From Roseimaritima ulvae (lineage in GTDB: Bacteria; Planctomycetota; Planctomycetia; Pirellulales; Pirellulaceae): a DNA stretch of 64,000 bases. Below are positions 14,813 through 45,178 of this stretch, one piece after another. Position 1 is the first letter of the stretch, and each line of letters starts with the position of its first letter. The notes under the pieces were generated by a model, which worked only from the letters and a program-made list of their open reading frames with translations, searched no databases and had not been told where the DNA came from. A program made the translations under genes and the position numbers. The stretch covers positions 2,542,001-2,606,000 of the forward strand of contig NZ_CP042914.1 of NCBI RefSeq assembly GCF_008065135.1, given 5' to 3'.

Positions 14813-16276
14813 ATGCTGAACTGGAATCTTCGAAAAATCTTCGGCACCTTTGCCTCCTGTCTGGTCCTGGCGATGTTCATCGAGCAAGGCTTTGCGGACG
14901 AGGCCGGCAAAGTGTTTCGCGCCGGGGCGGCGACCAGCAATATCACTCCTCCGCTGGGCGAAATGATTGTCGGCAACTGGCAGCCGATTCCGGCCACCAA
15001 CGTGCATGACGAATTACACGCTCGCTGCCTGGTCTTGGACGATGGCGACACGCAATTGGCAATCGTGCTGTGCGACAACGTGGGCATTCCCCGAGAAGTC
15101 TTTGATCTGGCCAAGCAACAGATTCAGGATGCCACGGATATCCCAAAGTCGCATCTGCTGTTAGCCGCCACGCATACGCATTCCGCGACCACGGCTCGCG
15201 GCAAAAGCAAGATGATTCAAGATGAAGCATTGACGGCCTATCAAACCTTTTTGGCTCAGCGGATTTCCGATGGCGTGCGGCGAGCGTTGGCACAACTCGA
15301 ACCGGCAAAAATCGGCTGGGGAAGTGCCCAAGAGCCTTCGGAAGTTTTCAATCGTCGCTGGTTCGTGGACGACCCGGCGCTATTGTCCAATCCCTTCGGC
15401 GGCGTCGATCGAGTGCGTATGAACCCGCCGCGTGGTCATAAGTCCCTCAATCGTCCGGCCGGACCCACGGATCCCGAGATCAGTTTCCTGTCGGTGCAAA
15501 GTACCGAAGGACGGCCGATCGCGCTGCTGGCTAACTACTCGTTGCACTACGTCGGCGGCGTTCGCCCGGGCGACGTTTCGGCCGACTACTTCGGCTACTT
15601 TGCCCGCTTCATCGAACAAAAGCTGAACGCTCGTGACCAGTTCCCGCCCTTTGTTGGCATCCTCTCCAATGGCACCAGTGGCGATGTGAACAACATCAAC
15701 TTCACCGATGCCAAACCACATCGCTACGGACGCTACGAAAAGATGGCCGAAGTTGCCGAAAAGGTGGCTAGCCGTGTTTATGAAGCTCATCAACAAATCG
15801 AATTCCACGACTGGGTGGACCTGGACGCCGCAGCCACGGATCTGGAACTGAAGACGCGAAAACCCACCGAGGAAATGCGAGCTCATTTCGCCGCGCTGGA
15901 CGAGGAGTCGTCGGACACGAAACGCCAAGGCCGCGAAGCGATCTATGCCAAGCGGGTCGCAAACCTGGACAAAGCCCCTGACACGGTCGATGTGCCGCTG
16001 CAGGTATTAAAGATCGGCGACCTGGGAATCGCGGCGATCCCCTTCGAAACGTTCACCGAAACAGGCCTGGAAATCAAAGCCAAAGGTCCGCTGGGAAAAA
16101 CCTTTACGATTGAATTGGCCAATGGTTCCTACGGCTACCTGCCCACGCCCGAACAACACCGATTGGGCGGCTACGAAACCTGGATGGGCACCAATAACGT
16201 TCAGTTGGATGCTTCGGAAAAGATCGTCGACACGCTGATGGAGTTGTTCGAAAGCCTACAGCAGCCGGCTCAATAA
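14813..16276 (+). CDS. Neutral/alkaline non-lysosomal ceramidase-type hydrolase
   Basis: 487 residues. A signal peptide (1-29, ending GFAD) is followed by the N-terminal catalytic domain of the neutral/alkaline ceramidase family. The family hydrolyses the amide bond of ceramide using a zinc ion. The conserved block AATHTHSA provides His121 and His123 as metal ligands. Further family blocks are AGAATSNITPPLG (38-49), LSNGTSGDVNNI (~283) and YGYLPTPEQHRLGGYETW (~440). The protein is shorter than full ceramidases (about 650-750 residues) because the C-terminal Ig-like domain is absent, which is usual for planctomycete homologues. Real substrates may be other N-acyl lipids. The same domain recurs at the N-terminus of the fusion protein at 25054. 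An isomerase/epimerase gene follows on the same strand beyond a hairpin. Confidence 0.85.
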   Translation: MLNWNLRKIFGTFASCLVLAMFIEQGFADEAGKVFRAGAATSNITPPLGEMIVGNWQPIPATNVHDELHARCLVLDDGDTQLAIVLCDNVGIPREVFDLAKQQIQDATDIPKSHLLLAATHTHSATTARGKSKMIQDEALTAYQTFLAQRISDGVRRALAQLEPAKIGWGSAQEPSEVFNRRWFVDDPALLSNPFGGVDRVRMNPPRGHKSLNRPAGPTDPEISFLSVQSTEGRPIALLANYSLHYVGGVRPGDVSADYFGYFARFIEQKLNARDQFPPFVGILSNGTSGDVNNINFTDAKPHRYGRYEKMAEVAEKVASRVYEAHQQIEFHDWVDLDAAATDLELKTRKPTEEMRAHFAALDEESSDTKRQGREAIYAKRVANLDKAPDTVDVPLQVLKIGDLGIAAIPFETFTETGLEIKAKGPLGKTFTIELANGSYGYLPTPEQHRLGGYETWMGTNNVQLDASEKIVDTLMELFESLQQPAQ

Positions 16277-16324: not shown

Positions 16325-16413
16325 GTAGGCCGGAACAAGCCGTGCGCCGTTCCGGCATGGGCAATCAAACGGCAACGCCTTGCCGGAACGGCGCACGGCT
16401 TGTTCCGGCCTAC
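16325..16413. repeat. Perfect 33-bp inverted repeat (hairpin element)
   Basis: The arms 16325-16357 and 16381-16413 are exact reverse complements over all 33 bases, separated by 23 bases. Each arm starts GTAGGCCGGAACAAGC and contains its own shorter inverted repeat (GCCGGAA and TTCCGGC). It lies between two same-strand genes and could act as a transcript-end or mRNA-processing hairpin. It has no open reading frame and no T-run. Confidence 0.9.
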
Positions 16414-16453
16414 ATTGCTTCCGTCCCTTCCCACCAACTATCCAACCACCAAC

Positions 16454-17380
16454 ATGCTCACTCCATCGATTTCTCGTCGTCAGTTCTGCGCCATCGGCGC
16501 CGCGGCCGCCGCTGCTGGCAGCTTGCAACCCAGCACCGTCAGTGCGGAAGACGCCTCATCCTTTCAGCTCAAATACCTGCTGGGCTCGTGCATGTACGGC
16601 TATCAGTACGTCGGCGAAATTTTTCCGGAGGTTCGCAAGACGGGGGCGACGGCGATCGATATCTGGCCCAAAGTCCACGGCAATCAACGCGAGCAGTTGG
16701 CGGATTTGGGTGAGCAAAAGTTTGCCGCGATGATGGCAGAGCATGACATCACGCTGGGTTGCATCACGCAGTACAAGCTGGGCCCGTTCGGGTTGCAGGA
16801 CGAGATGCGTGTGGCGAATCGGCTGGGCTGCCAGACGATGGTCACCGGTGGCAAGGGGCCGGTGGGACTGAAGGGACAGGAATTGAAGTCAGCGGTTGCG
16901 GCGTTTATTGAAAAGATGAAACCGCATCTCGCGGTCGCCGAACAGATGGGCGTGACGATCGCCATCGAGAACCACGCCAACAACTTGATCGATTCGGCGG
17001 ATTCGTTGAAATGGCTAGCGGAATTGAGCCCGTCAAAACATTTGGGCATCGCCTTGGCGCCGTATCATCTGCCACAGGACGAGCAATTGCTGAGTGACTT
17101 GATTAACACGCTGGGCGATTCGATTGCCGTCTTCTACGCTTGGCAACATGGCATGGGCTGTCACAAGAAATTGCCCAAGCAACAAGAACTGTTGCAGATG
17201 CCCGGCCGCGGCGACCTGAACTTCGGACCACTAGTGTCCGCGCTCAAACAGATCAACTACAAGGGTTGGACGGAAATCTTCATGCATCCCGTTCCTCGTG
17301 GCGTTCCCATTCTGGAGACGGCTGCTGAAGTCACCGCCGAAATCAACCGCAGTCGCCGCTATTTGGATGCCATGTTATGA
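16454..17380 (+). CDS. Exported sugar phosphate isomerase/epimerase-like TIM-barrel protein
   Basis: 308 residues from the ATG at 16454. An upstream in-frame start at 16400 lies inside the hairpin-flanking sequence and would bury the signal. The N-terminus is a Tat-type signal with Ser-Arg-Arg-Gln-Phe-Cys (residues 6-11) and an Ala-rich core ending TVSAED. The mature part is a xylose-isomerase-like TIM barrel. Recognisable elements are TAIDIWPK, a Glu metal-ligand segment TIAIENHANN, and a C-terminal block with KGWTEIFMHPVPRG. Family members interconvert ketoses and aldoses or their phosphates. Export through Tat would fit a metal cofactor loaded in the cytoplasm. Its last 22 bases overlap the convergent gene at 17359. 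Substrate unknown. Confidence 0.8.
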   Translation: MLTPSISRRQFCAIGAAAAAAGSLQPSTVSAEDASSFQLKYLLGSCMYGYQYVGEIFPEVRKTGATAIDIWPKVHGNQREQLADLGEQKFAAMMAEHDITLGCITQYKLGPFGLQDEMRVANRLGCQTMVTGGKGPVGLKGQELKSAVAAFIEKMKPHLAVAEQMGVTIAIENHANNLIDSADSLKWLAELSPSKHLGIALAPYHLPQDEQLLSDLINTLGDSIAVFYAWQHGMGCHKKLPKQQELLQMPGRGDLNFGPLVSALKQINYKGWTEIFMHPVPRGVPILETAAEVTAEINRSRRYLDAML

Positions 17381-18651: not shown

Positions 18652-21600
18652 CTACGGCGTCCAGTTCTCCATGCTCAGCACCTCACCGGTTTCGATCTCG
18701 GCCGGGTCCACCACGGCGTGCTTGACGCGTTGGCGTTTCCAGGTGTAGGTCATGTGGACCAAGCCGTCATCGGTTTGGATGATGGCGGGATAGCTGAACT
18801 CACCCTTGGTTTCCTGTTCCAGGATCCCCACTTTGTGCCATTTCAGACCGTCTTCGGAAATCGCTAGGTTCAGCATCCCGCGTCGTCCCCAGCCGGTTTT
18901 TCCGCTGCCCAGGTGATTGTAGATCATCAGGTGACGACCGTCGGCCAGCGTAACGACTTCGATTCCCGAGTTGGGGTTCGGCAAGCCGATGGCTTCCAGC
19001 TTGGACCAGGTTTGGCCTTGGTCTGACGAAAAACTGCTGACAATGACGCTTTCTTTGGTGCGGCATAGGACCTGTAATTTTCCGTCGGCGTGTTGCAGGA
19101 AGGTCGGTTGAATCGCGTTGTACTCTTCGCCCGTGTTGATCGGCCCAACCCGCTTCCAGGTACCGCTGGGCTGGCCGTCGACCAGCTCCGTGGATTCGAA
19201 GTGGATGGTCCAACCGTCGTATTCGGTGGAGGAACCGGACAGCAGCGTCTTGCCGTCGTCCAGCAGGATCGGTTTGCAACGCACCGGGCCATCGATGCCT
19301 TCGGGCAAGCGACGTCGCTGGCGGAACGATCGCCCACCGTCGTAACTGACCATCATTTCGCCCCACCACGTGCTGGGACTGGGGCCGACTTTGAAGAACA
19401 GCAACGTAGGGCCGTTACCGGGTGTTTGATACAGCACTGGATTCCAGCAAGGGTATCGCAGTCCGTCGTGTTGAACGCCATCGGCCACTTGCTTGGGCGA
19501 CGACCAACGCGAACCATCGTGGTAGCTCGTCCAGATCCCCACGTCCGGTTTGCCTTCGCGGCTGCCACCGAACCAGGCGGCGACCAGGCCGCGATTGGTT
19601 TCGCAAATCGTCGAAGCGTGGCACTGCGGAAAGCTGGCCTTGGTATAGATGAATTCGTCGCTGACGAAACCGGGGAATTTGGCTTCCGGCACCGGCTTGG
19701 GGGCGGCGGCGACCAGCTGCTCGCCGCTGTATTCGATGCAATCGTCGTGGTCGATGAAATACAGGCGGCCGTTTTCCGCACCTACGATCAGGTCCGGTTT
19801 GCCATCGTTATTAAAGTCACAGGCGGCGGGGCTGGAGGTGTGTCCGGCGACGTTGCGTTTGGCCAGATTGCCGATCTTTTTCATCACGACTTTGCCATCC
19901 CGATCTTCACAGTTGCGATACCAGGTGGCGTTCTCCGAGTTGACCAACAGGTCCAGCCGCGAATCGCCATCCCAGTCGACGACTTCCAATTTAACCCGTC
20001 CCGAGCTGCCGCACGATCTGGTATTCAATTGCAAAGGCCGATTGTTTTCGTCGACGAAGATTCGCTGTGCCTGTCGTCCGTTCGAACGCAGCGTCAAATA
20101 ACCTTCTTGGTCCAGCATCACCAGATCCAGTTTGCCATCGGCGTCGAAGTCGACGGCCAGCGGAGTGGTTCGCCACTGCGTCAGGGCATCACTGGACAGG
20201 GTTTGCCACCAGTACCATTTCGGCGGGGCTTCGGTCAGGCCCGTATCCAAAGCCGTGTCGACCAGAACACCATTGTTGTTCTGCAGCACACCGACGCGAG
20301 ACAGGATGGAGTTGTAGATCACGTCGGGATCATCGTCCCCGTCCCAGTCGGCAACCGACAGCGTGGTGTAGCCCCACTTGGCTTCGCAGGGGCCTTGGAT
20401 CGAACCGTTGCTGCCGGCCAGCACACGGAACGGCCGGGTGGTCGCTGAGTCGCTGCCGACTTGAGTCTCTAGCAGTGCCGGCCCGGACCATTTGGGCAGT
20501 CCGTTTTCGCCGGCGCCGAGATTTTCGAACCAGCCGATGTAGCCGGCTGTGTTGCCGCACAGGATATCTTCGTCGCCGTCGCCGTCCCAGTCGTAAGCAT
20601 AGGGAGTCGCCAAGGCGCCAAACTTCAGCGTGTCGGCTTGCTGCTGAAAATACTGGGGGGCCACAAAAACCGGTTGCGAGCCGCGGAAGGTTCCCGTGTT
20701 TTCCACCAATGCGACGCGTCCGTCTTCATCGCCAACGATCAAGTCCAGGTCTCCGTCGCCGTCCCAATCAAAGGCCGTGGGCGTGATCATTTGCAGGTCC
20801 ATGACCAAGGGCCGGCCTTGGTCGTCCAGCAGTTTCTGTCCCGCGCCGTAGTGGGGTTCGGTACGCGAGCCCACGTTTTCGAAATAGGTGAAACCATCCA
20901 AAAACTCTCCGCACAGCAGGTCCAGGTCTCCGTCGCCATCGAAGTCGGCAAAGTTGGGAGAGGGCCAGCCGTACACGTCGATCGGGGCCCCGGCGGCTTG
21001 AATCTTCTGGGGTGTGTCGGCGTACTTGGGTTCGGCATCGCTGCCTTCATTGGCGATCCAATACACGTTGCCGTGCAGACGCCCGTTTTGCCAACGTCCA
21101 TGGTTGTCATAAGCGTTGTCCCACACGTAGTCGGTCCAGTCGCCGGTGCCGACGACCAGATCATGGTCACCATCGCCGTCGTAGTCCACGTACCGCCACA
21201 TGTTGCCGCGGACGTGGTTCTTGTGGATGTTACTCTTGGGATAGATGCGTTTGCCCTTGCCAAAATCAAATTTACCGCTGTCGGGGTCGCGAGGGAATTC
21301 AGTGCTCGTTTGCAGGATATGAGGTTGCCCGTCGACGTAGCTGATCTGCATGTTGTGAGAGGTCTTGCCGACGCGCACACCGGGAAGAAATACCGGCATT
21401 TTGACGCTCGCATCTTGCGTCGGGTTTTCGAAGAAGTAAACCCCGTTGGAAGGTTTGTCGGGGCAGGAAACCAACAGATCCAAATCCCCGTCGCCGTCGT
21501 AGTCGATCGGCATCGGCCAAGCCCACAGACCGACGCCCAAATCCACCGACAATCCAGGATGGTTGTATCGCAGCGGTTGCAGTTTCCAATCGGATTGTTG

Positions 21601-21711
21601 AGCCCACAGGCTGGTGGCGGAGGCAAGCAGTAAACAGAGGGATACGAGGTATCGAGCAACGAACCTGGTCGCTGGCGTCATGGTTGTCATTCTTTGCGGA
21701 AGGCGTGGCAT
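18652..21711 (-). CDS. Secreted VCBS/FG-GAP propeller fused to an exo-alpha-sialidase-type domain
   Basis: 1019 residues. The ATG at 21709-21711 has AGGA six bases upstream; ATGs eight and eleven codons further in are alternatives. A signal peptide ends near residue 38 (SLWAQ). Residues ~50-650 contain many FG-GAP/VCBS calcium-binding repeats of the form YDGDGDLDLL or WDGDGDEDIL, which build beta-propellers. Residues ~660-1019 are a BNR-type sialidase propeller with GLVAAWFGGSREGKPDVGIW, an Asp box SSDQGQTW, and catalytic-site-like segments (GPVRCKPILL, NPNSGIEVVTL). Sialidases release terminal sialic acid, and planctomycete homologues often act on other sugars. The propeller may bind the substrate polymer. 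A remnant frame ends seven bases upstream. Confidence 0.88.
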   Translation of the reverse strand: MPRLPQRMTTMTPATRFVARYLVSLCLLLASATSLWAQQSDWKLQPLRYNHPGLSVDLGVGLWAWPMPIDYDGDGDLDLLVSCPDKPSNGVYFFENPTQDASVKMPVFLPGVRVGKTSHNMQISYVDGQPHILQTSTEFPRDPDSGKFDFGKGKRIYPKSNIHKNHVRGNMWRYVDYDGDGDHDLVVGTGDWTDYVWDNAYDNHGRWQNGRLHGNVYWIANEGSDAEPKYADTPQKIQAAGAPIDVYGWPSPNFADFDGDGDLDLLCGEFLDGFTYFENVGSRTEPHYGAGQKLLDDQGRPLVMDLQMITPTAFDWDGDGDLDLIVGDEDGRVALVENTGTFRGSQPVFVAPQYFQQQADTLKFGALATPYAYDWDGDGDEDILCGNTAGYIGWFENLGAGENGLPKWSGPALLETQVGSDSATTRPFRVLAGSNGSIQGPCEAKWGYTTLSVADWDGDDDPDVIYNSILSRVGVLQNNNGVLVDTALDTGLTEAPPKWYWWQTLSSDALTQWRTTPLAVDFDADGKLDLVMLDQEGYLTLRSNGRQAQRIFVDENNRPLQLNTRSCGSSGRVKLEVVDWDGDSRLDLLVNSENATWYRNCEDRDGKVVMKKIGNLAKRNVAGHTSSPAACDFNNDGKPDLIVGAENGRLYFIDHDDCIEYSGEQLVAAAPKPVPEAKFPGFVSDEFIYTKASFPQCHASTICETNRGLVAAWFGGSREGKPDVGIWTSYHDGSRWSSPKQVADGVQHDGLRYPCWNPVLYQTPGNGPTLLFFKVGPSPSTWWGEMMVSYDGGRSFRQRRRLPEGIDGPVRCKPILLDDGKTLLSGSSTEYDGWTIHFESTELVDGQPSGTWKRVGPINTGEEYNAIQPTFLQHADGKLQVLCRTKESVIVSSFSSDQGQTWSKLEAIGLPNPNSGIEVVTLADGRHLMIYNHLGSGKTGWGRRGMLNLAISEDGLKWHKVGILEQETKGEFSYPAIIQTDDGLVHMTYTWKRQRVKHAVVDPAEIETGEVLSMENWTP

Positions 21712-25053: not shown

Positions 25054-28000
25054 ATGAAAATGCTGCTTTCCATGCTGTTGATAGGGTTGCTGTTCCCGCT
25101 CAGCTTTGCCTCTGCCGAAAACGTTTTGCGTGCCGGTGCGGCGTCCGTTGATATTTCGCCTCGCAGCTTCCCCGCCATCCGCAACGGGGGATTCCTGGAA
25201 GCCACCGGAACGGAAGTCGCCGATCCATTGCACGCGCGATGTTTAGTCCTGGCCGACGGTAAGGAAACGATCGCGATCACGATTGTTGATTCGTGTATGT
25301 TTCCCACCGACATCTGCGACGCGATCAAGTCCAGGGTCACCGAAAGAACCGGTCTGCCTGCCGATCGCATCCTGATCAGTGCCACTCACACCCATTCGGC
25401 TCCGTCGGTGATGTCGTATTGCTTGGGCACCCGTAGCGATCAAGCCTACACCGAATACGTTGTTCCACGCGTTGCGGAAGCCATCGTTACAGCGCACGAA
25501 AAATTGCAGCCGGCAAGAATCGGTTGGACGGCCGTCGACGCTGGCGAACAAACCAATTGCCGTCGCTGGATCACACGCAGCGACCGCATGGGCACGGATC
25601 CATTTGGCCAGCGAACGGTCCGAGCCATGATGCATCCCGGCTACCTGAATCCCGACTATGTCAGTCCCGCTGGTCCCATCGACCCGCAGTTGTCGTTGCT
25701 GAGCGTGGTGGCCGCCGACGACACTCCGCTGTGCTTGCTGGCCAATTTTTCGATGCACTACTTCGGCCATGGCTCCGGCTTTTCGGCCGACTACTTCGGT
25801 GAAGTTGCGGGCCTACTGGAATCCGGGATTGCCGCCACCGCGGACCAGACGCCTAGCCATTTTGTAGGCATCATGTCGCAAGGTACCAGTGGCGATCTGC
25901 ACTGGATGGACTATGGCAAACCACGTCGCCGCGTCGACCGCACGGAGTATGCGAAAACGCTGGCCGAAACCGCTTTGACGGCCTGGAAGCAAATCCAACA
26001 TCGATCCGACATCACGATCGCGATGGCCGAATCCCGAATGAAGTTGCGGCGACGAATTCCCGATGCCCGACGCCTGGCCTGGGCCCGGCCGATCAACGAG
26101 CAACGCGGCGATGCACCGCCCAAAAACCGGACGGAGGTTTACGCACAGCAGGCACAGTGGATTCATGAACATCCCGAAGCCGAGGTGGTGTTGCAAGCCC
26201 TGCGGATCGGCGACCTGGCTATCACCGCTCTGCCCAACGAAGTCTACGGAATCACCGGACTGAAATTGAAACAACAAAGCCCTCTGGTCAGCACCTTCAA
26301 CTTGGAGCTTGCCAATGGCGCCGAAGGATACATCCCACCGCCCGAACAACATCGACTGGGAGGTTATACGACTTGGCCGGCGCGTACGGCCGGGCTGGAA
26401 GTCGAAGCCGAACCGAAGATCGTCGAAAAGATTTTGACGTTGTTGGAATCCGTATCGGGAAAACCGCGACGAGTTTTGGTCGATCCACCCAGTGCGTTTT
26501 CTCTAGCCGTCATGAAAGCCCAGCCCACCGCGTACTGGCGACTGGGAGACATGGTGGTCGACCAAGCCGTCGACGCAACCGGCCAGCACCCCGCGAAGTT
26601 CGACGGAGGCGTGGCCTTGTATCTGCAGGGACCCGACCTGCAAGTCGACTCGACCACCGGCAAACAAGATTCCATCAACCGCTGTGTTTATTTTGCAGGC
26701 GGTTCGCTGCAAGCAAACGTTGCCCAGCTGCCTTCCCACTACAGTCTGTCGATGTGGTTTTGGAACGGCTTGCCCGCTGGCAGTGAAGATCCCTCGGCAG
26801 CTCTGTTTTCTCGTGGGGCGGGTGCGGCCCAGGAGTCGTTGTCAATTGTCAGCACCGATGAGGGGCTGCCGGTGCTGGCCTTCCGCAGCGGAGGCACCGC
26901 GCAAGAACACTCCGAGCAGCACGTGGGATCGACGCCGCTGGTCACCAAGGCCTGGCATCACGTGACCGTGGTTCGCGACGCCGAGGGGATAAGAATTTTT
27001 CTAGACGGCAAGGCCCGACCCGAACTGGCTACGTCGCTGCGTTCGGCCGCTCCCGCATCGGCGGAATTTTCATTTGGCAACTTCGACGGCAAACTGGACG
27101 AAATCGCCTTGTTTGCTCGCATCGTGTCGGTGGACGAGATGGTGGATATCTATCGTGCCTCGAACATGAAAGCTCCTCAGGCTCCGCCGCAACCCCTTGT
27201 CCTCGGTGAAAAGCCTTCGGACGACGGGGCTCTAAAGCGGTACGCCGAGGGAATCCAAAAATCGCAACCGGTCACTTATTGGCGACTGCACGACCGCAAC
27301 CGAAACGCTGCCCATGATGAACAGGGCGAGCACGACGGGCGGTATGAACCTCGTTCGGGTCCCCGCAAACCGGGTGCGCTGCAAGCGAATTTTTCGGGTG
27401 GTCGGATGCTGGCGAAGGTGCCGAATTTGGACCATCAATACAGCGTCGAATTTTGGTTTTGCAATCAACTTCCACACACCCACCGGCCGGTCACCGGCTA
27501 CCTGTTTACCCGCGGCCTCGACGGCGCTCATGGCGCACCCGGTGACAGTTTGGGAATCGGCGGCACTCATGCATCGTTGGGACGGTTGCTGCTATATAAC
27601 GGCAACCAACGCGGCGAATTGCTCAGCGGTAAAACCATGCTGGCAACCAATAGCTGGAACCATGTGGTGCTGACCCGCGATGCAAACCAAGTACAAGTTT
27701 TCTTGAACGGCAAACTTGAAATCGACGGCCAGCTAAACGCCACCTATCCCGACGGTTGCCCTCAAATTCAGATCGGTGGCCGCAACGACAACTTCGCTAA
27801 TTTCCAGGGCATGATCGATGAGGTCGCGGTATACGATCGCACGCTTTCGGCCGACGAAGCTCAAACACACTTCGCCATCGCCGGCACCAAACCGCTTGCC
27901 CAGACGAAAACACTTGCTCAGGCAAAAGTAGAGTCGCCGCAGGAACCCGAGCCAACCGCGTCCGCGGCATCTCTAGAAAAGATTCATATTCGCGACGGAT

Positions 28001-30801
28001 TCGAAGTCCAGTTGGTCGCCAGCGAACCGCTCATCAAGGACCCCGTCGCCATCGACTGGGGGTTGGACGGCAAACTGTGGGTCGTGGAAATGGCAGACTA
28101 CCCGCTGGGCATGGACGGAGCCGGTGAACCGGGAGGCCGCATCCGCGTCCTGGAAGACCAAGACGGTGATGGTCGTTACGATTCGTCGACGCTGTTTGCC
28201 GAGGGGCTGCGGTTTCCCAATGGGCTGTTGGTTTGGGGAAACGGCGTGTTGGTGACGGCCGCCCCCGAAATTCTGTATTTGGAAGACAGCACCGGCGATG
28301 GTAAGGCCGACATCCGACGCCGTCTGTTCAACGGATTTCTGGAGGGCAATCAGCAGTTGCGAGTCAACGGGCTGCGCTGGGGGCTCGACAACTGGGTTCA
28401 CTGCGCCAGCGGCAGCCACCATTCGGGCTACGGCAAAGGCAATCAGATCACCTCCGTGCTGACGGGACAGTCCCACCGAATCGGCAGTCGCGACTTTCGC
28501 ATCCGGCCCGATAGCGGCGACATCGAACCGCAAAGTGGCCCCTCGCAATACGGCCGCAATCGTGACGACTGGGGCAACTGGTTTGGTGTGCAAAACAGTC
28601 TGCCGCTGTGGCATTATGTGTTGGCCGATCAAGACATTCGCCGCAATCCTCATTTCGCTCCGCCCGATCCTAAACACCAAGTCGTGACGCCCAGCAACCC
28701 GCTGGTGTACCCCGCCGCACAGCTGCAGAAACGATTCCACAACTTCGACCAATCAGGGCGTTTTACATCCGCGTGCTCTGCGATCATCTATCGCGACAAC
28801 GTGCTGTTCCCGCGCGGCGAAAACCAACAGCATGCCTTCACGTGCGAACCATTTCACAATCTGGTCCAACATAACATCATCACCGACGACGGAGTCAGCT
28901 TTGACTTCCACCGCGATCCAGCAGAACCGGAGTTTGATTTCTTCGCCAGTCAAGATCGTTGGTGCCGGCCCGTGATGGCTCGCACCGGGCCCGACGGAGC
29001 GCTGTGGATCGTGGACATGTATCGCTACATGATCGAACATCCGCAATGGCTGCCACAGGCCGGAAAAGACGAACTGCGACCTTATTATCGGCTGGGTGAA
29101 AATCATGGCCGTATCTATCGTGTCGTGCCTGAGGGAAAATCGCTCACGACGCCCCCAATCGCAAACTCGACAACCGGTATGCTCGCCGCTCTGGCCAGTT
29201 CCAATGGCTGGCAGCGCGACGTGGCACAACGCTATTTCGCACACGGCAATGATGCAGCCGCCCTGCTGCAGATTGAGTCGTTGGCGACCGCGGGCGAATC
29301 GCCGGTACAGCGTTTACAAGCCCTGTGTACGCTTGATGGTATGCAGAACCTAAGCACCGATGTTTTGCAAACCGCATTGCAAGATCCGCATGCCGGCGTC
29401 CGGCGACAGGCGGTCCGGCTGGCTGCACTGCATGCCGTCGACATTCAACAGTTGCGACCGCTAGTGAAGGATCCGAGTGTTAGAGTGCGACTGCAATTGG
29501 CCGCTACGTTGGGTGCCTACGATGATCCGCTGGCCGCGCAGCTGTTAGCCCAGCTGGCGGTTGAATCAGCCGGGGACGTTTACATCCTGGCGAACGTAAT
29601 GAGCTCGCTGAATCAAGGCAACATCGCTGACGTATTGACTGCCACGATTGCGATGTCGTCCGACGAGACGGCGTCCTCGAAATCTCAACGTCGTTTGCAA
29701 CAGCAGTTGTTTGGACAGGTCGCCGCTCTCGGTGATACCACGGCCATTGGGCATGTGGTCGCCAAAATCTGCAAAGCGCCGGACGGATCGCTGCAGCCGT
29801 GGCAACTTGCCGGACTGGCGGATCTGCTGGACGGATTAACAAAACGCAAGTTTGCTTTGAATCAGCTATCCGCCGATCAACAGGATTTGATCCAGCAAGC
29901 GATCGAGCAAGCCCGTGCGGCGGTTGCCCAAACTCCCCAGCGGCTGTCACCGCAGACTGAGGCCTCACTTCGGCTGTTGTTGCGTCAGGACAAGGTCTAT
30001 GCAGACGATCTGCAGCGGTTGTCCAACTTGTTGGTGCCCCAGTCGGCGGTCGAGCTGCAATGGGCCGTCGTGGATCGCTTGGCCCTGCAGGACGATTCGC
30101 AGATCGCCGAGGTGCTGCTGGCCCCTTGGCAGTCCTACGGGCCATCGCTGCGCTCGCGCGTGCTGGATGTGCTGGCGAGTCGGACGCAGTGGAGCCGCGT
30201 GCTGCTGACCGCTGTCCAATCGCGGCGGGTATCCAGTGGCGAAGTCAGTCCATCGCTGCGAGAACGTTTGTTGGCAACCAAAGATCAAGCCCTGAAAGAC
30301 GCTTGGACCGCAGCTTTCACGGCCACGACCACGCAGAATCGCAAACTGGTTATCGAACGCTACCAAGCCGCTTTGACGTTGACCGGTGAGGTTGAACGCG
30401 GCCGCAAGGTGTTTGCAACCAGCTGTGCGGCCTGTCACAAGCTTGGCACCGTTGGCCATAACGTGGGACCCGATCTGGCTTCGATCACGGACAAACGCCC
30501 GGCAACCCTGCTGGCCAACATTCTGGATCCCAGTGCCGAAGTCGAAGCCCGTTATTTGACCTATATCGTCGTCACCGACGATGGTCGCGTTCACAACGGA
30601 TTGCTGGCAACCGAAACCGGCAGCAGCATCACGCTGTTATCCAACGACGGCAAACGCGAAACCATCTTGCGAACGGAGATTGAGGAATTGCGTGCATCAG
30701 GAAAATCATTGATGCCCGAGGGACTCGAAAAAGATCTTTCGCCGCAAGCCGTCGCCGACCTAATTGCCTGGCTAACCGCCAAACCTAAACCCAACCATTA
30801 A
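25054..30801 (+). CDS. Giant fusion: ceramidase domain, two LamG domains, PVC-type dehydrogenase propeller, HEAT repeats, cytochrome c
   Basis: 1915 residues from the ATG at 25054 (start of the signal peptide MKMLLSMLLIGLLFPLSFAS); a TTG six codons upstream is less likely. Domains: neutral-ceramidase type (~25-460, SATHTHSAPS with His112/His114, YIPPPEQHRLGGYTTW); two LamG/concanavalin-like domains (~485-700 and ~730-945, each beginning with AYWRL or TYWRL); PVC-type membrane-bound dehydrogenase beta-propeller (~978-1390, RDGFEVQLVASEP, WVVEMADYP); HEAT-like repeats (~1390-1680); and the PVC heme-binding domain with CAACH at 1791-1795 and later GRVHNGLLA. The last three modules form a standard planctomycete periplasmic quinoprotein-like unit. 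The ceramidase and LamG modules in front are unusual. There is no internal stop or frame break. A DUF1080 gene follows eight bases downstream, probably in one operon. Likely role: periplasmic binding, deacylation and oxidation of glycolipids (inference). Confidence 0.9.
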   Translation: MKMLLSMLLIGLLFPLSFASAENVLRAGAASVDISPRSFPAIRNGGFLEATGTEVADPLHARCLVLADGKETIAITIVDSCMFPTDICDAIKSRVTERTGLPADRILISATHTHSAPSVMSYCLGTRSDQAYTEYVVPRVAEAIVTAHEKLQPARIGWTAVDAGEQTNCRRWITRSDRMGTDPFGQRTVRAMMHPGYLNPDYVSPAGPIDPQLSLLSVVAADDTPLCLLANFSMHYFGHGSGFSADYFGEVAGLLESGIAATADQTPSHFVGIMSQGTSGDLHWMDYGKPRRRVDRTEYAKTLAETALTAWKQIQHRSDITIAMAESRMKLRRRIPDARRLAWARPINEQRGDAPPKNRTEVYAQQAQWIHEHPEAEVVLQALRIGDLAITALPNEVYGITGLKLKQQSPLVSTFNLELANGAEGYIPPPEQHRLGGYTTWPARTAGLEVEAEPKIVEKILTLLESVSGKPRRVLVDPPSAFSLAVMKAQPTAYWRLGDMVVDQAVDATGQHPAKFDGGVALYLQGPDLQVDSTTGKQDSINRCVYFAGGSLQANVAQLPSHYSLSMWFWNGLPAGSEDPSAALFSRGAGAAQESLSIVSTDEGLPVLAFRSGGTAQEHSEQHVGSTPLVTKAWHHVTVVRDAEGIRIFLDGKARPELATSLRSAAPASAEFSFGNFDGKLDEIALFARIVSVDEMVDIYRASNMKAPQAPPQPLVLGEKPSDDGALKRYAEGIQKSQPVTYWRLHDRNRNAAHDEQGEHDGRYEPRSGPRKPGALQANFSGGRMLAKVPNLDHQYSVEFWFCNQLPHTHRPVTGYLFTRGLDGAHGAPGDSLGIGGTHASLGRLLLYNGNQRGELLSGKTMLATNSWNHVVLTRDANQVQVFLNGKLEIDGQLNATYPDGCPQIQIGGRNDNFANFQGMIDEVAVYDRTLSADEAQTHFAIAGTKPLAQTKTLAQAKVESPQEPEPTASAASLEKIHIRDGFEVQLVASEPLIKDPVAIDWGLDGKLWVVEMADYPLGMDGAGEPGGRIRVLEDQDGDGRYDSSTLFAEGLRFPNGLLVWGNGVLVTAAPEILYLEDSTGDGKADIRRRLFNGFLEGNQQLRVNGLRWGLDNWVHCASGSHHSGYGKGNQITSVLTGQSHRIGSRDFRIRPDSGDIEPQSGPSQYGRNRDDWGNWFGVQNSLPLWHYVLADQDIRRNPHFAPPDPKHQVVTPSNPLVYPAAQLQKRFHNFDQSGRFTSACSAIIYRDNVLFPRGENQQHAFTCEPFHNLVQHNIITDDGVSFDFHRDPAEPEFDFFASQDRWCRPVMARTGPDGALWIVDMYRYMIEHPQWLPQAGKDELRPYYRLGENHGRIYRVVPEGKSLTTPPIANSTTGMLAALASSNGWQRDVAQRYFAHGNDAAALLQIESLATAGESPVQRLQALCTLDGMQNLSTDVLQTALQDPHAGVRRQAVRLAALHAVDIQQLRPLVKDPSVRVRLQLAATLGAYDDPLAAQLLAQLAVESAGDVYILANVMSSLNQGNIADVLTATIAMSSDETASSKSQRRLQQQLFGQVAALGDTTAIGHVVAKICKAPDGSLQPWQLAGLADLLDGLTKRKFALNQLSADQQDLIQQAIEQARAAVAQTPQRLSPQTEASLRLLLRQDKVYADDLQRLSNLLVPQSAVELQWAVVDRLALQDDSQIAEVLLAPWQSYGPSLRSRVLDVLASRTQWSRVLLTAVQSRRVSSGEVSPSLRERLLATKDQALKDAWTAAFTATTTQNRKLVIERYQAALTLTGEVERGRKVFATSCAACHKLGTVGHNVGPDLASITDKRPATLLANILDPSAEVEARYLTYIVVTDDGRVHNGLLATETGSSITLLSNDGKRETILRTEIEELRASGKSLMPEGLEKDLSPQAVADLIAWLTAKPKPNH

Positions 30802-30808
30802 GGACTCT

Positions 30809-32929
30809 ATGTTCCATCGTCATAACACCATGCTGAGAGAAACCATGAACCGAACGCTTCGACATCCTTCCGCAGCCCTCCTGCTTCTGCTGACATTCGT
30901 GTGGCTGGGCTCTGCAATGTCCACGGTCCACGCCGAACCGCCGCAAGGTTTCACGCCGCTGTTTAACGGCAAAGACTTGACCGGCTGGAAGGGCTTGGTG
31001 GGCAATCCCAAATCGCGTGCGGCAATGTCGCCGGAAGAACTGGCGACCGCGCAGCAAGCCGCCGACGAAAAAATGCGTGCTCACTGGTCCGTGGTCGACG
31101 GGGTGTTGCAGTTCGACGGTAAAGGCAGCAGCTTATGCACTGCGAAAGACTACGGCGATTTTGAACTGTACGTCGACTGGAAAATCCTCGAAGCCGGTGA
31201 CAGCGGCATCTATCTGCGCGGTAGTCCACAGGTGCAGATCTGGGACACCGAACATCCAGACTACTTTCGCCACGGTGCTGAAAACGGTTCCGGTTCCTTA
31301 TGGAACAACAAGAACAACCCACGGTTTCCGCTGGTCAAAGCGGACAAGCCCGTCGGTCAGTGGAACACGTTCTACATTCGCATGATCGGCGAACGGGTGA
31401 CGATTAAACTAAATGATCAGCTGGTGGCCGATAACGTGGTCATGGAAAACATCTGGGACCGCGGTATGCCGATCTATCCGCGTGGGCAGATCGAACTGCA
31501 AAACCATGGCAACACCTTGTACTTTCGCGACTTGTACATTCGCGAAATCCCGGCAGCCGAAGCCAACGAAATTCTGGCTGCCGAAGAAGCGGACGATTTT
31601 CAGAGCATCTTTAACGGACGCGATTTTGTAGGCTGGCAGGGAGCTTTAGAGAACTGCGAAATCGTCGACGGTGCGATCGTTTGGAAGTCGGGCAAGGGCG
31701 GTACGGTGTTTACCGACAAGCAATACACCGACTTCATCGCCAGGATGGAATTCAAACTTCCTCCGGGAGGCAATAACGGCATCGCCGTGCGTTATTCCGG
31801 AGAAGGCACGGCCAACCAGGGCGGCATCGAATTGCAGGTGCTGGATTCCGAGCATCCCAAATACGCCAAGCTTGATCCGCGGCAGTACCACGGTTCGGCT
31901 TACGGATTGGTGCCCGCCCACCGCGGATATCTGCGGCCCACCGGCGAGTGGAATTTCCAGCAAGTCACCATGCGTGGCTCGAAGCTGAAAGTCGAATTAA
32001 ATGGCACCACAATTTTGGATGCCGATCTATCCGAAGTGAAAGAGTCGAAGGATGGTCCGCTGAATCCGAACGCTTCACGGAAGACCGGGCACTTCGGTTT
32101 CGGTGGTCACAACGATCCGGTGGCGTTTCGCAACCTTTCGATTCGCGAACTGCCAGGCGAACCCGCTTCGCCACCGGCACGTGAGACGGCGATCAGCCCC
32201 ACTGACGGCCCGATCAAGTTGTTTAACGGATGCAACTTGGAAGGGTTTTATCCATGGCTGCGCGATACAAAGTATTCCGATCCCAAAAAGATCTTTACCG
32301 TACAAGACGGCATGTTGCACATTTCCGGCGACGGTTACGGGGGGCTGATCACCAATCGTGCGTATCGCGACTACCACTTAATCGTCGAATTCAAATGGGG
32401 CGAAAAGACGTGGGGCGACCGTGTGGATCGCGCCCGTGACTCCGGGGTGTTGGTACACGCCTGGGGACCCGACGGAGGTTTCGGAAATACCTGGATGGCC
32501 GCGATCGAAGCCCAGATCATCGAAGGCGGTGTGGGGGACATTCTGGTGCTGACCGGTTCGGATCCCGTGACCGGCCAACGGCTTCCGGTCTCTTTGACCG
32601 CGGAAATCGGTAAGGATCGTGACGGTGAAAAGGTGTGGCAGAAGGGGGCCGAGCGAATGACCTTATCGAGTGGCCGGATCAACTGGTTCGGACGCGACGA
32701 GGACTGGGCCGACAAAATTGACTTCCGCGGCAAACAGGACGTGGAGAGCCCGTTCGGGGAGTGGACGCGGTTGGAGGTCATCGCCGACGGCGGTCACTTG
32801 CTGTACAAGGTCAACGGCGTAGTCGTCAACGAAGGCTTCGAAGCCCAACCCAATTCTGGCAAACTGATTCTGCAAACCGAGCAAGCGGAAATGTACGTGC
32901 GAAAATTCGAACTAAGGCCACTAGAATAG
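30809..32929 (+). CDS. Exported triple-domain DUF1080 (3-keto-disaccharide hydrolase family) protein
   Basis: 706 residues from the ATG at 30809 (AAGGA four bases upstream). An ATG at 30845, with GAGAG upstream, gives a tidier signal peptide ending TVHA and is an equal alternative. Three consecutive DUF1080 domains are visible, each opening with a Phe-Asn-Gly-(x)-Asp/Asn segment: LFNGKDLTGWKG (~50), IFNGRDFVGWQG (~270) and LFNGCNLEGFYP (~470). The first two also carry SGIYLRGSPQVQIWD- or NGIAVRYSGEG-type blocks of the concanavalin-like fold. Members include 3-keto-glycoside hydrolases that cleave oxidised disaccharides, and many planctomycete copies are uncharacterised. Eight bases separate it from the dehydrogenase fusion upstream, consistent with an oxidation-then-hydrolysis pathway. 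Which domains are catalytic is unclear. Confidence 0.85.
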   Translation: MFHRHNTMLRETMNRTLRHPSAALLLLLTFVWLGSAMSTVHAEPPQGFTPLFNGKDLTGWKGLVGNPKSRAAMSPEELATAQQAADEKMRAHWSVVDGVLQFDGKGSSLCTAKDYGDFELYVDWKILEAGDSGIYLRGSPQVQIWDTEHPDYFRHGAENGSGSLWNNKNNPRFPLVKADKPVGQWNTFYIRMIGERVTIKLNDQLVADNVVMENIWDRGMPIYPRGQIELQNHGNTLYFRDLYIREIPAAEANEILAAEEADDFQSIFNGRDFVGWQGALENCEIVDGAIVWKSGKGGTVFTDKQYTDFIARMEFKLPPGGNNGIAVRYSGEGTANQGGIELQVLDSEHPKYAKLDPRQYHGSAYGLVPAHRGYLRPTGEWNFQQVTMRGSKLKVELNGTTILDADLSEVKESKDGPLNPNASRKTGHFGFGGHNDPVAFRNLSIRELPGEPASPPARETAISPTDGPIKLFNGCNLEGFYPWLRDTKYSDPKKIFTVQDGMLHISGDGYGGLITNRAYRDYHLIVEFKWGEKTWGDRVDRARDSGVLVHAWGPDGGFGNTWMAAIEAQIIEGGVGDILVLTGSDPVTGQRLPVSLTAEIGKDRDGEKVWQKGAERMTLSSGRINWFGRDEDWADKIDFRGKQDVESPFGEWTRLEVIADGGHLLYKVNGVVVNEGFEAQPNSGKLILQTEQAEMYVRKFELRPLE

Positions 32930-41626: not shown

Positions 41627-44600
41627 CTATCGGTCAGTGCTCGTGGCTTGTTGATGATCTCGCAACAATTCCGCAATCATTGGGCGATCCTGTTGCATAC
41701 GTTGAAGATCGATTTCTATGTCGACCAAGTTGCCAACGAAGCGGTATACGTCTTCGAGCGATTCGTTCCATGGTGAGGAGACGACATCCATGGGCTGTTC
41801 GCCGCGATTGCTTCGTGTCTCCGTCGACGCTCCGTGTTGGAGCAACAACTTGACAACTTCGGTGTGACACAGGAACGCGGCGATGTGCAGAGGAGCATTG
41901 CCGTCGCGATTGGTCGCGTCGACGTCCGCACCCTGTTGGATTAGATACCTTGCTATCGGCAGGTTGCCGTGCAAAGCGGCGGTAACTAGAGGTGTTGAAC
42001 CCGTTTCCGTTTGGCGATCGTTCAGGTCGGCACCGCGGTCGATCAAACGCTCTAGACGAGCCAGGTCGTTATCAGCGATTGCGTCCGCGACAAGGCCTTG
42101 CAAACCGATATGGGGTTCATCGATCTCCGTCTGCAGAGCCACCGCAGCGTCGGCATCCGCGACGACGTGAAAGATGAAATCATTGCTAAACATGCCCGCT
42201 GTGTTTTGGACTTGCAACAAATGCATCCCCTCCTTCGGTAGCGTCGGGAAATGGATCTCCAGTTGCTCGTCTTCGATCTGAAGCGTCGCGGGAACACGGC
42301 GTCCATCAACGATCACATTGGCATCGGGCTGAATATGCCGGCCGCTGATGACCATACGATGACTGCCTTGGTACAAGATGGGAAACTGCTGCCGCCCGCG
42401 TTGTTGTTCGATAGGACCACGTGTCCACAGCGCTGGTTGCGGGTGTTCGACATCGGCACGGACGCCGTGTCGAGCGGTAAAGGTTCCCACAAATTTGCCC
42501 TGAGCCGCACCCTCGATCAGTTCGTCGCGAGAGAACACCATGTTCGGTTTTTGCCTGCTCACATAGTGCGTGCCGTCGTAGCTAAGCGAGATCGGTTGGG
42601 GGCTATCTTTACCGATCAGGACGGCTTGGCCATCAAGCACAACGGCCTGTTCTCTAGACGCTAGCTCTAACGCGTTCAACAAATCAATCGAAACGGGGTC
42701 ATTTACCGTGTTTTGGTTCAGTGTTACTTGGCGTGCAAAGGAGCCCGAAAATCCGGTGCTGCCTTCGAGTACCATTTCCCAGACCGGATCAAATCGGGAT
42801 CTGCCCGCCCAGGAGAACTGCCAAATACTTCGCTCGTCTTGTCCCTGTTCAGCGACTCGTCGGTAAAAATCGAACTCAATGATATTCAAGCGTCCTTGAG
42901 GCAGGATCAAGAAACGATCATAAGCACCTCGCCACGTCGGCGCGTCCATGCCTGTCCCTGGTGTGTTGGTGCTAACCAAGAACGGCATGCGATGGCAATT
43001 GCCACACACGTTGGGCCGGAGTTTTTCGTCATGGTCACCGTCGATGTGAAACAGCTTGAACCCGTCGAGGGCTCGCTGCGAAACCACATTGGTGTAGGCT
43101 CGCCGTTGCGATGGCGGATACGGCACGCTCAACAAAAACGTGGCCATGTCATCGCGCTGTGCGGACGTCAACGCTCCCGCTTTGCCTTCGTCATTCATCT
43201 GCTTGTCGCCGACAAGTGACATCGTTCCAGCGATCCCGCCGTCGATCAAGTGACGTGTGCTGCTGGTCGGATCATGAGCGTCGCTATTGGGTGGCACGGA
43301 ACCGTGAATACTGGCGCTGTTGTTGCCACCATACGGATCGCCCGGAACTCCATCCCAGTGAAACGGAGCGGTGTCACGCAGTCCGCGGATCGGCATCGTG
43401 CTGCGTGGCATGATTTGATCGCCCCCACTGACGATCGGCGTTTTCAAAACCCACAGTAGTTGATCGGTATGGCCGTCCGGGTGACAGCTTGCGCAGGAAA
43501 ACGTCGCCGTGGTGGATGCCGAGGCTGACTCAAAGGCCATTCGTCCGCGTTTGACCGTGGGGTGAGTTGGGTCGAATAAGTCGAGCGTGGAAACAACACT
43601 CGGGTTACTTGTGTCGCGGAGATCGACCAGGGACACCGAGTTCGATACGGCGTTGTAGACCCATGCTTGTGACAGGGATCCATCAGCTTCGTTTTCCAAG
43701 GCGATTCCACGCGGGACCGCACCCACGTCGACCGACCCCAAGACGTCGCCATTGTGGGCGTCCAGCGTGAAAACCTTATCGGACGCCGCGGCGGAAGCCA
43801 CCAGCACCTGATCATCCGGACTGACTGCAATCGCAAACGGCGTCGCCAGGGCGTCTTCCGGTTTCGGATGCAGCGGCGGTAACGGTTCCAGATCGAAAAA
43901 GCTGGGCTGGGCTTCGTTCGAGGCAAATTGAACCCGCGTGATTCGATTCAGAAACGCGCGATTTTCTAACTCTGCAAGCCCGTGCTTTTTCGTGCCGCTG
44001 CGACCGTTGGCGTCATTGCGAGCATCCGTTTGAGCAATAAAGACGGTGCCTTCGGAATCCACGGCCATGCCATACAGCAGCGTGCCGAGCGAATCGACCG
44101 TATCGATCAACTCGTCCGTATCGGTGTCAAACACAAATAGATCCCGATCGGGAACCTCGGGATGCTTGACAATGTCGACAACATGTCCCAACGACAAGAC
44201 GTTGTTGTGAAGGACTGAGTGCTCCCATGCATCAAACGTCACCAGATCGCCATCAAACGGTTTTCGACCACCTGAAAGTTGAGTCTGGTTGTTTGATTCA
44301 AACGGGATCACGTACAGTCGGTTTCCCTGAACGGAAATGGCTCGGGGGTCTTGGGCCGCGATTTTCAATCGCTTCACTACCTCGTGCGTGGCAACATCCA
44401 CAACGGCGATCGTATTTTCCGAAGACAAAGCGATGTACGCTTTTGCGTTACTCGCAAAGGCGATCCCAACGGGCTCATCAAAACGTGTCGACTTGGTCGC
44501 TTCGTCGATCGCTTGCACGGTTGCGATCACGCGCAAGAAGGTGGAACTGTCGGAATTGGTGTCGATCACGCTGACGGAATCAGAAATGTGATTCGAGACC

Positions 44601-44932: not shown

Positions 44933-45178
44933 CGCAACCTCCCCTCGATCCCAACTAATGACGATCGCCTCTAAGGCCCTTCCGCGACAGCCTAGCGGAT
45001 CAAAAGCAAAACTCTGTTGCGATTGCGTATCCAAATGTAACAGCAGTGAATGCCGCCCCAAATGAAAACTCAGCGATCGATCTTCAAGCGAACCCGACTG
45101 GAGAAGGGGAACCTTGGAGGGGCAAGAGACGGTTCAGGGATTCCGAACGGGTGAAGATCTCTAAGCGAAGTAGAGAAG

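What the first reader, a model, noticed from the sequence alone, without database searches (positions are those of the whole stretch)
25054..30801. Ceramidase fused to LamG domains, a PVC dehydrogenase, HEAT repeats and cytochrome c
One uninterrupted 1915-residue frame joins a neutral-ceramidase-type hydrolase (His112/His114) and two LamG-like domains to a full planctomycete dehydrogenase/heme unit ending with CAACH (1791-1795). Dehydrogenase-HEAT-heme units are common in the phylum, but the ceramidase-plus-LamG front is not one I know. It would bind, deacylate and oxidise a lipid-linked sugar in one periplasmic protein. A DUF1080 (3-keto-sugar hydrolase family) gene follows eight bases downstream, which fits an oxidise-then-cleave pathway.
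Basis: partly seen in the sequence, partly recalled or inferred. Interest (0 to 1): 0.8.

Follow-up and report, generated by a model that had tools for sequence, protein, structure and literature searches.

The report
Ceramidase-like, lectin-like, sugar-oxidase-like heme protein
A very long secreted protein of a planctomycete joins a ceramidase-like zinc hydrolase, lectin-like domains and a sugar-active propeller with its own heme; the join is real and recurs in its class, and it suggests that these bacterial "ceramidases" may really strip acyl groups from sugars.

Summary
In detail: one intact 1915-codon frame (25054-30801, +) carries a neutral-ceramidase-fold domain, two LamG-like domains, DUF7133/TIGR02604, HEAT repeats and a CAACH heme domain. 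Ceramidase-like and DUF7133 units are also joined without LamG, joined in reverse, or sit side by side, more often than chance (4 of 15 loci in three genomes picked blind, 0.27 expected). Zn-site residues are invariant (44 of 44) and the heme has CxxCH and a distal-Met candidate (37 of 37). A verrucomicrobial relative of the propeller-HEAT-heme unit, purified by others, releases glucose from lactose. Best reading: a periplasmic deacylase coupled to a heme-linked sugar-processing unit for acylated glycans; substrate unknown.

The parts
25054..25119 (+). signal peptide (hydrophobic N-terminus, residues 1-22, likely cleaved after ASA)
   Evidence: sequence; no signal predictor was run
25126..26463 (+). 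neutral-ceramidase-fold domain, residues about 25-470
   Evidence: Pfam PF04734 55-282; AF2 model pLDDT 88.9, pTM 0.92; Foldseek: the four matches with probability 1.00 are neutral ceramidases, E 9e-26 to 2e-24, TMq 0.69-0.72; all others 0.28 or less
25387..25395 (+). His112-Thr-His114, aligned to His97/His99 of P. aeruginosa ceramidase
   Evidence: 44 of 44
26239..26241 (+). Glu396, aligned to Glu411 of P. aeruginosa ceramidase
   Evidence: 44 of 44
26521..27228 (+). first LamG-like domain, residues about 490-725 (bounds approximate)
   Evidence: Laminin_G_2 match 579-676; Laminin_G_3 has two stretches, only the better one printed with coordinates
27256..27888 (+). second LamG-like domain, residues about 735-945 (bounds approximate)
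   Evidence: Laminin_G_3 793-935
27964..29133 (+). DUF7133 / TIGR02604 beta-propeller, residues 971-1360
   Evidence: model; GSDH profile match 98.1 percent, E 8.7e-14; Foldseek PQQ glucose/aldose dehydrogenases among the hits
28357..28359 (+). Leu1102, at the place of the GSDH catalytic His
29170..30363 (+). HEAT-repeat solenoid, residues about 1373-1770
   Evidence: HEAT_2 1437-1509, helical repeats in the model
30385..30780 (+). c-type heme domain TIGR02603, residues 1778-1909
   Evidence: 30 percent identity to Kustd1711 diheme cytochrome in the structural match; sequence match E 1.2e-16
30424..30438 (+). CAACH heme attachment motif, residues 1791-1795
   Evidence: C, C and H 37 of 37
30712..30714 (+). 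Met1887, distal heme ligand candidate, aligned to Met292 of Kustd1711
   Evidence: alignment (position counted); 37 of 37
30809..32929 (+). neighbouring gene: three 3-keto-disaccharide hydrolase (PF06439, DUF1080) stretches; part of the locus, not a conserved partner

Best explanation
A secreted, probably periplasmic enzyme for acylated glycans. SHOWN by sequence and models: a hydrolase domain of neutral-ceramidase fold with its Zn-site residues, one or two LamG-like domains, a GSDH-like propeller, a HEAT solenoid and a c-type heme domain with CxxCH and a Met-ligand candidate, in one chain. INFERRED: the LamG domains hold a glycan; the Zn domain removes an acyl group (amide or ester; an N-acyl amino sugar is the simplest substrate by analogy with the amide-cleaving neutral ceramidases); the exposed sugar is then processed by the propeller, with electrons passed to the built-in heme if the step is an oxidation. 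Joining the steps in one chain hands the product on directly. The exact propeller chemistry (oxidation, or oxidation-assisted glycoside cleavage) and the substrate are unknown.
For: 29 of 29 fetched long frames, plus L008-L011, keep order and frame (chosen for their long frames). Zn-site columns H112, H114, H235, E396, Y426 invariant in 44 of 44, and the same five kept in 18 of 18 diverged ceramidase-family domains checked. The two units find each other repeatedly: 9 of 38 ceramidase-family loci lie within 4.5 kb of a DUF7133 match in 5 genomes (0.94 expected, 0 of 20000 shifts); in three of these picked without sight of fusions, 4 of 15 (0.27 expected, 8 of 50000). The has-ceramidase label needs 5 changes on the DUF7133 tree, at least 4 forced by starred branches. 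Other fronts on the same unit include a GDSL esterase (L123, L125), ThuA (L119, L038) and a polysaccharide deacetylase match just under cut-off (L111, 22.8 bits against 23.1). Lac161_ORF7, a verrucomicrobial TIGR02604-HEAT-CxxCH protein, released glucose from lactose when purified (Km 1.8 mM; PMC5342196, section 15 and passages). Met1887 aligns to Kustd1711 Met292.
Against: No substrate evidence for this ceramidase subfamily at all. The catalytic His of soluble glucose dehydrogenase is lost (Leu 31 of 31, Met 3 of 3), so the propeller may not oxidise as that enzyme does. The propeller-HEAT-heme model's top Foldseek rows by E-value are nuclear-pore composites at TM 0.16, and a non-redox propeller, luciferin-regenerating enzyme, scores like the sugar dehydrogenases. 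No conserved sugar-gene neighbour (67 flanking ORFs: sulfatase 4, DUF1080 3). PF04734-type fronts also occur alone or with LamG only (L012-L015), so the activities are separable. FG-GAP fronts (L122, L047) are not acyl hydrolases.
Confidence: 0.45

Rival explanations
1. One reading: a true ceramidase-type lipid amidase joined to a dehydrogenase, acting on a lipid-linked sugar (glycosphingolipid-like).
For: Only neutral ceramidases match the fold with confidence, and they are the two significant profile matches; Zn-site residues kept.
Against: 18 bits against 1200 on the neutral ceramidase equivalog model; no C-terminal ceramidase domain in the Pfam table; 14-15 percent identity in the structural matches; 3 to 16 family loci per genome in five genomes, odd for a ceramide enzyme in hosts not known (recalled) for ceramide.
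Confidence: 0.1
2. The propeller is not a dehydrogenase but a glycosidase (as Lac161_ORF7 was reported), and the heme serves another role; the chain is a deacylase-glycosidase.
For: Lac161_ORF7, overexpressed in E. coli, released glucose from lactose, and the main text holds neither 'cofactor' nor 'NAD'; whether that protein carried heme is not said in what I saw. The GSDH His is absent here.
Against: CxxCH and Met are 37 of 37, hard to explain without electron transfer; oxidation-then-cleavage would also release glucose; whether Lac161_ORF7 belongs to DUF7133 proper was not tested, its sequence was not at hand.
Confidence: 0.2
3. Two independent activities tethered at one place, each serving its own substrate, with the HEAT/LamG parts as anchors; no shared pathway.
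For: Ceramidase-like domains occur alone or with LamG in many genomes; the space between front and propeller fits one LamG in 17 of 34 fusions and two in the other 17 (boundaries).
Against: Repeated pairing and adjacency beyond chance.
Confidence: 0.15
4. Frame or assembly artefact at the LamG junctions.
For: None found; reads were not available.
Against: The same order in one frame in 33 other genes, incl. a complete chromosome (L008, CP036432.1); no N, even GC3.
Confidence: 0.01

Closest known systems
Neutral ceramidase (PDB 2zws, 2zxc, 4wgk; PF04734)
   Same: fold and Zn-site residues
   Different: 14-15 percent identity in the structural matches, far below the equivalog cut-off, no C-terminal ceramidase domain, followed by LamG and a redox-type unit
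PVC propeller-HEAT-heme proteins (TIGR02604/TIGR02603, DUF7133); Lac161_ORF7 (PMC5342196) is the one member for which I found a reported activity
   Same: domain order propeller-HEAT-CxxCH, over both NCBIfam cut-offs
   Different: carries a Zn-hydrolase and LamG front; GSDH-type His replaced by Leu, whereas relatives such as L111, L025 (other fronts) and L118 (none) have His; Leu is also seen in DHs without a fused front (L121, L127, L131, L134)
Soluble PQQ glucose/aldose dehydrogenase (GSDH; PDB 8re0, 5min, 1c9u, 3das) and family AA12
   Same: propeller homology: hhalign 98.1 percent, E 8.7e-14; Foldseek E 7e-5 to 2e-3
   Different: catalytic His absent; AA12 also lacks it in over 25 percent of sequences, often with Leu (PMC6881810, passages)
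Kustd1711 diheme cytochrome (PDB 7zs0)
   Same: C-terminal heme domain, 30 percent identity, Met292 matched by Met1887
   Different: one heme domain here, in a multi-enzyme chain

Membership tests
Neutral ceramidase | catalytic-domain fold | tested here: met
   Foldseek 2zws E 8.6e-26, TMq 0.70
Neutral ceramidase | Zn ligands and substrate residues (His97, His99, Arg160, His204, Glu411 of the P. aeruginosa enzyme; roles recalled, numbers counted from the printed alignment) | tested here: met
   aligned to H112, H114, R170, H235, E396 (R170 placed with less certainty); H112, H114, H235, E396 44 of 44, R170 invariant
Neutral ceramidase | fourth Zn ligand Tyr448 (recalled) | tested here: inconclusive
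   Y426 is 44 of 44, but no alignment reached that residue
Neutral ceramidase | equivalog score NF041649 of 1200 bits or more | tested here: not met
   18 bits
Neutral ceramidase | C-terminal immunoglobulin-like ceramidase domain | tested here: not met
   no such family in the Pfam table at E 0.01; LamG follows instead
Neutral ceramidase | cleaves ceramide | not testable with these tools
   needs an enzyme assay
PVC heme-binding CxxCH protein (TIGR02604/TIGR02603, DUF7133) | scores over cut-offs and carries CxxCH | tested here: met
   253.6 over 122.2 and 124.6 over 68.15 bits; DUF7133 496.7 over 27
Soluble PQQ glucose dehydrogenase | general base His144 (PMC6881810) | tested here: not met
   Leu1102 at that column (hhalign); His in 90 percent or more of 19 GSDH rows, which were picked by their GPDG motif
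Soluble PQQ glucose dehydrogenase | Arg228/Asn229 pair at PQQ | tested here: inconclusive
   R1168-N1169 lies near; R in 45 and N in 30 of 65 rows, but hhalign left a gap there
Soluble PQQ glucose dehydrogenase | host makes PQQ | tested here: inconclusive
   PqqE over cut-off in 0 of 20 genomes (weak matches under it in 20 of 20 and in all 14 controls), PqqC match in 0 of 20, but no control genome was over cut-off for either
LamG/ConA-like lectin | profile match over cut-off | tested here: met
   Laminin_G_3, two stretches, 109.7 bits over 27.6; ligand not testable
3-ketoglycoside pathway with DUF1080 | dehydrogenase-type and DUF1080 genes conserved together | tested here: not met
   DUF1080 among the nearest flanking ORFs of 3 of 34 fusions, this one included

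The most novel reading that the evidence does not exclude
The large planctomycetal 'ceramidase' family is a hidden family of Zn-dependent glycan deacylases, and in this fusion deacylation is wired to an atypical (His-less) propeller and its own heme, making a one-chain 'deacylate, oxidise and cleave' glycan enzyme of a kind not described.
Probability: 0.2. Interest if true: 0.75.

Novelty: new variant of a known kind. Interest (0 to 1): 0.5.

Why it matters
The planctomycete genomes searched carry several genes of ceramidase type and many of the 'membrane-bound dehydrogenase' type with no known function; their repeated joining says that the two work together. That turns two vague annotations into one test: give the fusion or its separate halves acylated glycans and watch acyl release and heme reduction. 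It also warns that the name ceramidase is probably wrong for this subfamily.

Tried and rejected
Artefact: rejected on 33 relatives. Operon logic with DUF1080: rejected as a rule; the flanking ORFs there are the nearest of the largest non-overlapping frames, one per side, not curated genes, and some will be spurious; L086 has a DUF1080 gene further off. A split DH next to the unfused ceramidase-LamG gene of L012 was looked for and not found within its 17 kb; likewise no ceramidase-like gene near the unfused DH of L133/L134. Ser279 as a catalytic Ser: not supported, the column varies in diverged copies. Tyr448 equivalence by a C-terminal profile gave no useful alignment. PQQ dependence left open. 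Trees are quick ones with SH-aLRT only, and long branches meet (L124 with L102-L104), so a separate fusion of L102-L104 rests on both trees agreeing, not on bootstraps; the label changes counted may be losses as well as gains; a single origin of the main fusion has support 47 only, and unfused L127 and L134 fall in the same 33-row clade. Rows that were fragments or duplicates of longer fetches were left out of the trees; of the 49 front domains listed, A1 used 43 plus the window (two fragments, L016 and L017, and four diverged ones, L107-L110, were left out), and of 37 DH units A2 used 36 plus the window (L110 left out). The five-genome test used one distance (4.5 kb between centres; one G201 pair is just inside it) and coordinates typed; G000 and G024 were known to hold fusions beforehand. 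Literature: ten searches. PMC5342196 was read in section 15 and passages; PMC9007349, PMC6881810 and PMC6881789 in passages only; all other papers as listings. Two ceramidase structure papers, by DOIs that I recalled, were not held.

Full report
THE OBSERVATION. The frame 25054-30801 (+) is open over 1915 codons without N. Pfam and NCBIfam give Ceramidase_alk, two Laminin_G_3 stretches, DUF7133 with TIGR02604, HEAT_2, and TIGR02603 with Cytochrom_C, in that order. CAACH is at 1791-1795 and the HTH pair at 112/114. A gene with three 3keto-disac_hyd (DUF1080) stretches starts 7 bases after the stop. The window is bases 2542001-2606000 of a single 8.2 Mb contig; its nearest named relatives are Stieleria and Rhodopirellula-type strains.

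NOT AN ARTEFACT. One scan of named genomes gave ten relatives of the front domain. Four (L008-L011, among them a complete chromosome) have the whole architecture at 75-78 percent identity in the front and 82-83 percent in the propeller; four (L012-L015) have front plus LamG without the propeller unit; L016 and L017 are cut by contig ends. In a search of 397 genomes of the class, 278 have a front-domain relative at E 1e-40, and the listed open frames are mostly about 520 aa (alone), 700-1100 aa (with LamG where checked) or 1380-1966 aa; by my count 38 listed rows from 37 genomes, the window's own included, are of the last kind, one of them with a stop inside the match. This is a lower bound, because the list was cut and at most four candidates per genome were scored. 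I fetched the loci of 27 of the 36 other genomes, and two more: 29 of 29 carry front, LamG, DUF7133, HEAT and heme in one frame; nine genomes were not looked at. With L008-L011 and the window there are 34 verified fusions. By domain boundaries 17 of 34 have room for two LamG domains and 17 for one; the closest relative, L078 (85 percent), has room for one.

THE FRONT DOMAIN. A profile of 44 front domains finds, among solved proteins, the two neutral ceramidases (E 3e-11 and 1e-10) and one chance-level row. The AF2 model (pLDDT 88.9, pTM 0.92) matches only neutral ceramidases with confidence. Counting from the printed alignments, H112, H114, H235 and E396, and with less certainty R170, fall on His97, His99, His204, Glu411 and Arg160 of the P. 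aeruginosa enzyme; their roles as Zn ligands and substrate residues are recalled, the papers were not held. H112, H114, H235, E396 and Y426 are 44 of 44. In 18 diverged relatives, including LamG-less fusions and lone genes, the H, H, H, E and Y columns are kept in 18 and R in 16. So this looks like a working zinc hydrolase of ceramidase fold; but the equivalog model gives 18 bits against 1200, so calling it a ceramidase is not warranted.

THE PROPELLER AND HEME. The model of residues 967-1915 (pLDDT 87.4) gives mixed Foldseek rows: first nuclear-pore composites at TM 0.16, then Kustd1711 for the heme domain, then importin-like solenoids for HEAT, and for the propeller soluble PQQ glucose dehydrogenase (8re0, 5min, 1c9u), aldose sugar dehydrogenase (3das) and the non-redox luciferin-regenerating enzyme (5d9b) at E 7e-5 to 2e-3. 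hhalign of 65 DUF7133-type rows against GSDH rows gives 98.1 percent, E 8.7e-14, over 305 columns. The GSDH general-base His falls on Leu1102. This column is Leu in 31 of 31 of the main fusion clade, Met in 3 of 3 of L102-L104, Ala in 4 and His in 3 of 7 fusions without LamG between front and propeller, and His in the reversed fusion L126. Among the 23 rows without a fused front it is His in ten (QH 5, EH 3, HH 2; L111 and L022 are one gene) and Leu in four (L121, L127, L131, L134). In the PQQ family AA12 the same His is missing in over 25 percent of sequences, often as Leu (PMC6881810, passages), so loss does not exclude oxidation but makes the textbook mechanism unlikely. PQQ biosynthesis gave no answer (nothing over cut-off, and no control over cut-off either). 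CxxCH and Met1887 are 37 of 37; Met1887 aligns with Met292 of Kustd1711, which its depositors mutated.

THE TWO UNITS FIND EACH OTHER. Beyond the main form I saw: front-DH without LamG (L107 in this very genome, L108, L109, L129 by Pfam; L029, L030 by profile only), LamG-front-DH (L110), DH-front in reverse order (L126), a front from the LamG clade on a different DH (L102-L104), and adjacent separate genes (L120 in this genome, whose ceramidase match is under the Pfam cut-off; L131). On the DH tree the has-ceramidase label needs 5 changes, at least 4 forced by starred branches; on the front tree the DH-linked label needs 7; changes may be gains or losses. In five genomes 9 of 38 ceramidase-family loci lie within 4.5 kb of a DUF7133 match (0.94 expected; 0 of 20000 shifts); restricted to the three genomes whose fusions I had not seen, 4 of 15 (0.27 expected; 8 of 50000).

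OTHER FRONTS. The same unit carries GDSL esterase (L123, L125), ThuA (L119, L038), FG-GAP (L122, L047) or, just under cut-off and with FG-GAP, polysaccharide deacetylase (L111) ahead of the propeller. Acyl-removing and sugar-related partners thus recur, though not without exception, and I sampled only some of them. This genome alone has 33 DUF7133 matches, some of them two pieces of one gene.

WHAT IT DOES. The one experiment on a relative that I found: Lac161_ORF7, verrucomicrobial, TIGR02604-HEAT-CxxCH, purified, released glucose from lactose with Km 1.8 mM (PMC5342196, section 15 and passages). DUF1080 proteins are proposed 3'-ketolactose hydrolases (PMC9007349, passages). I therefore hold that the fusion deacylates and then oxidises or cleaves a glycan. 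The steps after the domain assignments are inference. The DUF1080 gene next door fits, but DUF1080 flanks only 3 of 34 fusions, so it is no proof.

KNOWN OR NOT. No paper describing the architecture came up in the searches for ceramidase with planctomycet- (3 papers, unrelated by title), TIGR02604 (1, PMC5342196), ceramidase with PF04734 (3), planctomycet-/heme-binding/3-keto (1), DUF7133 (0), non-lysosomal ceramidase with bacteri- (10, unrelated by title), and any three of six terms (1, the lipocone paper PMC12419801, not opened) (listings only except PMC5342196). The library lacks most subscription papers, so older domain surveys of planctomycetes may mention it.

VERDICT. Observation confirmed; interpretation partly supported; a widespread new variant of known kinds, with a clear test. 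Interest 0.5.

Noticed in passing
window 14813-16276 (+) and 16400-17380 (+): A second, lone ceramidase-family gene (PF04734, 49 bits) is followed after about 120 bases by a xylose-isomerase-like TIM-barrel gene (PF01261), again a sugar context.
   Followed up: partly
L120 5421-7157 (-) and 2602-5430 (-), same genome: A diverged ceramidase-like gene (under the Pfam cut-off) directly upstream of a separate DUF7133-HEAT-heme gene on the same strand: the split form of the fusion.
   Followed up: partly
L126 67-4938 (-): DUF7133-HEAT-heme with the ceramidase-like domain at the C-terminus, the reverse order.
   Followed up: partly
L119, L122, L123, L125 (same genome as the window): Other DUF7133 proteins of this genome carry ThuA, FG-GAP or GDSL-esterase fronts; the genome has 33 DUF7133 matches.
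   Followed up: partly
window 18652-21711 (-): 1019-aa protein with FG-GAP repeats and a BNR_2 sialidase-like domain; frames that cluster loosely with it occur in 14 of the loci, but the clustering may chain.
   Followed up: no
window 3303-11189 (-): 2628-aa protein with dockerin, NIDO, Ig-like and nine RHS-repeat stretches; a second dockerin protein with PAP2 lies at 1367-3184 (-).
   Followed up: no
window 41627-45061 (-): 1144-aa protein with weak beta-propeller matches and C-terminal ankyrin repeats.
   Followed up: no
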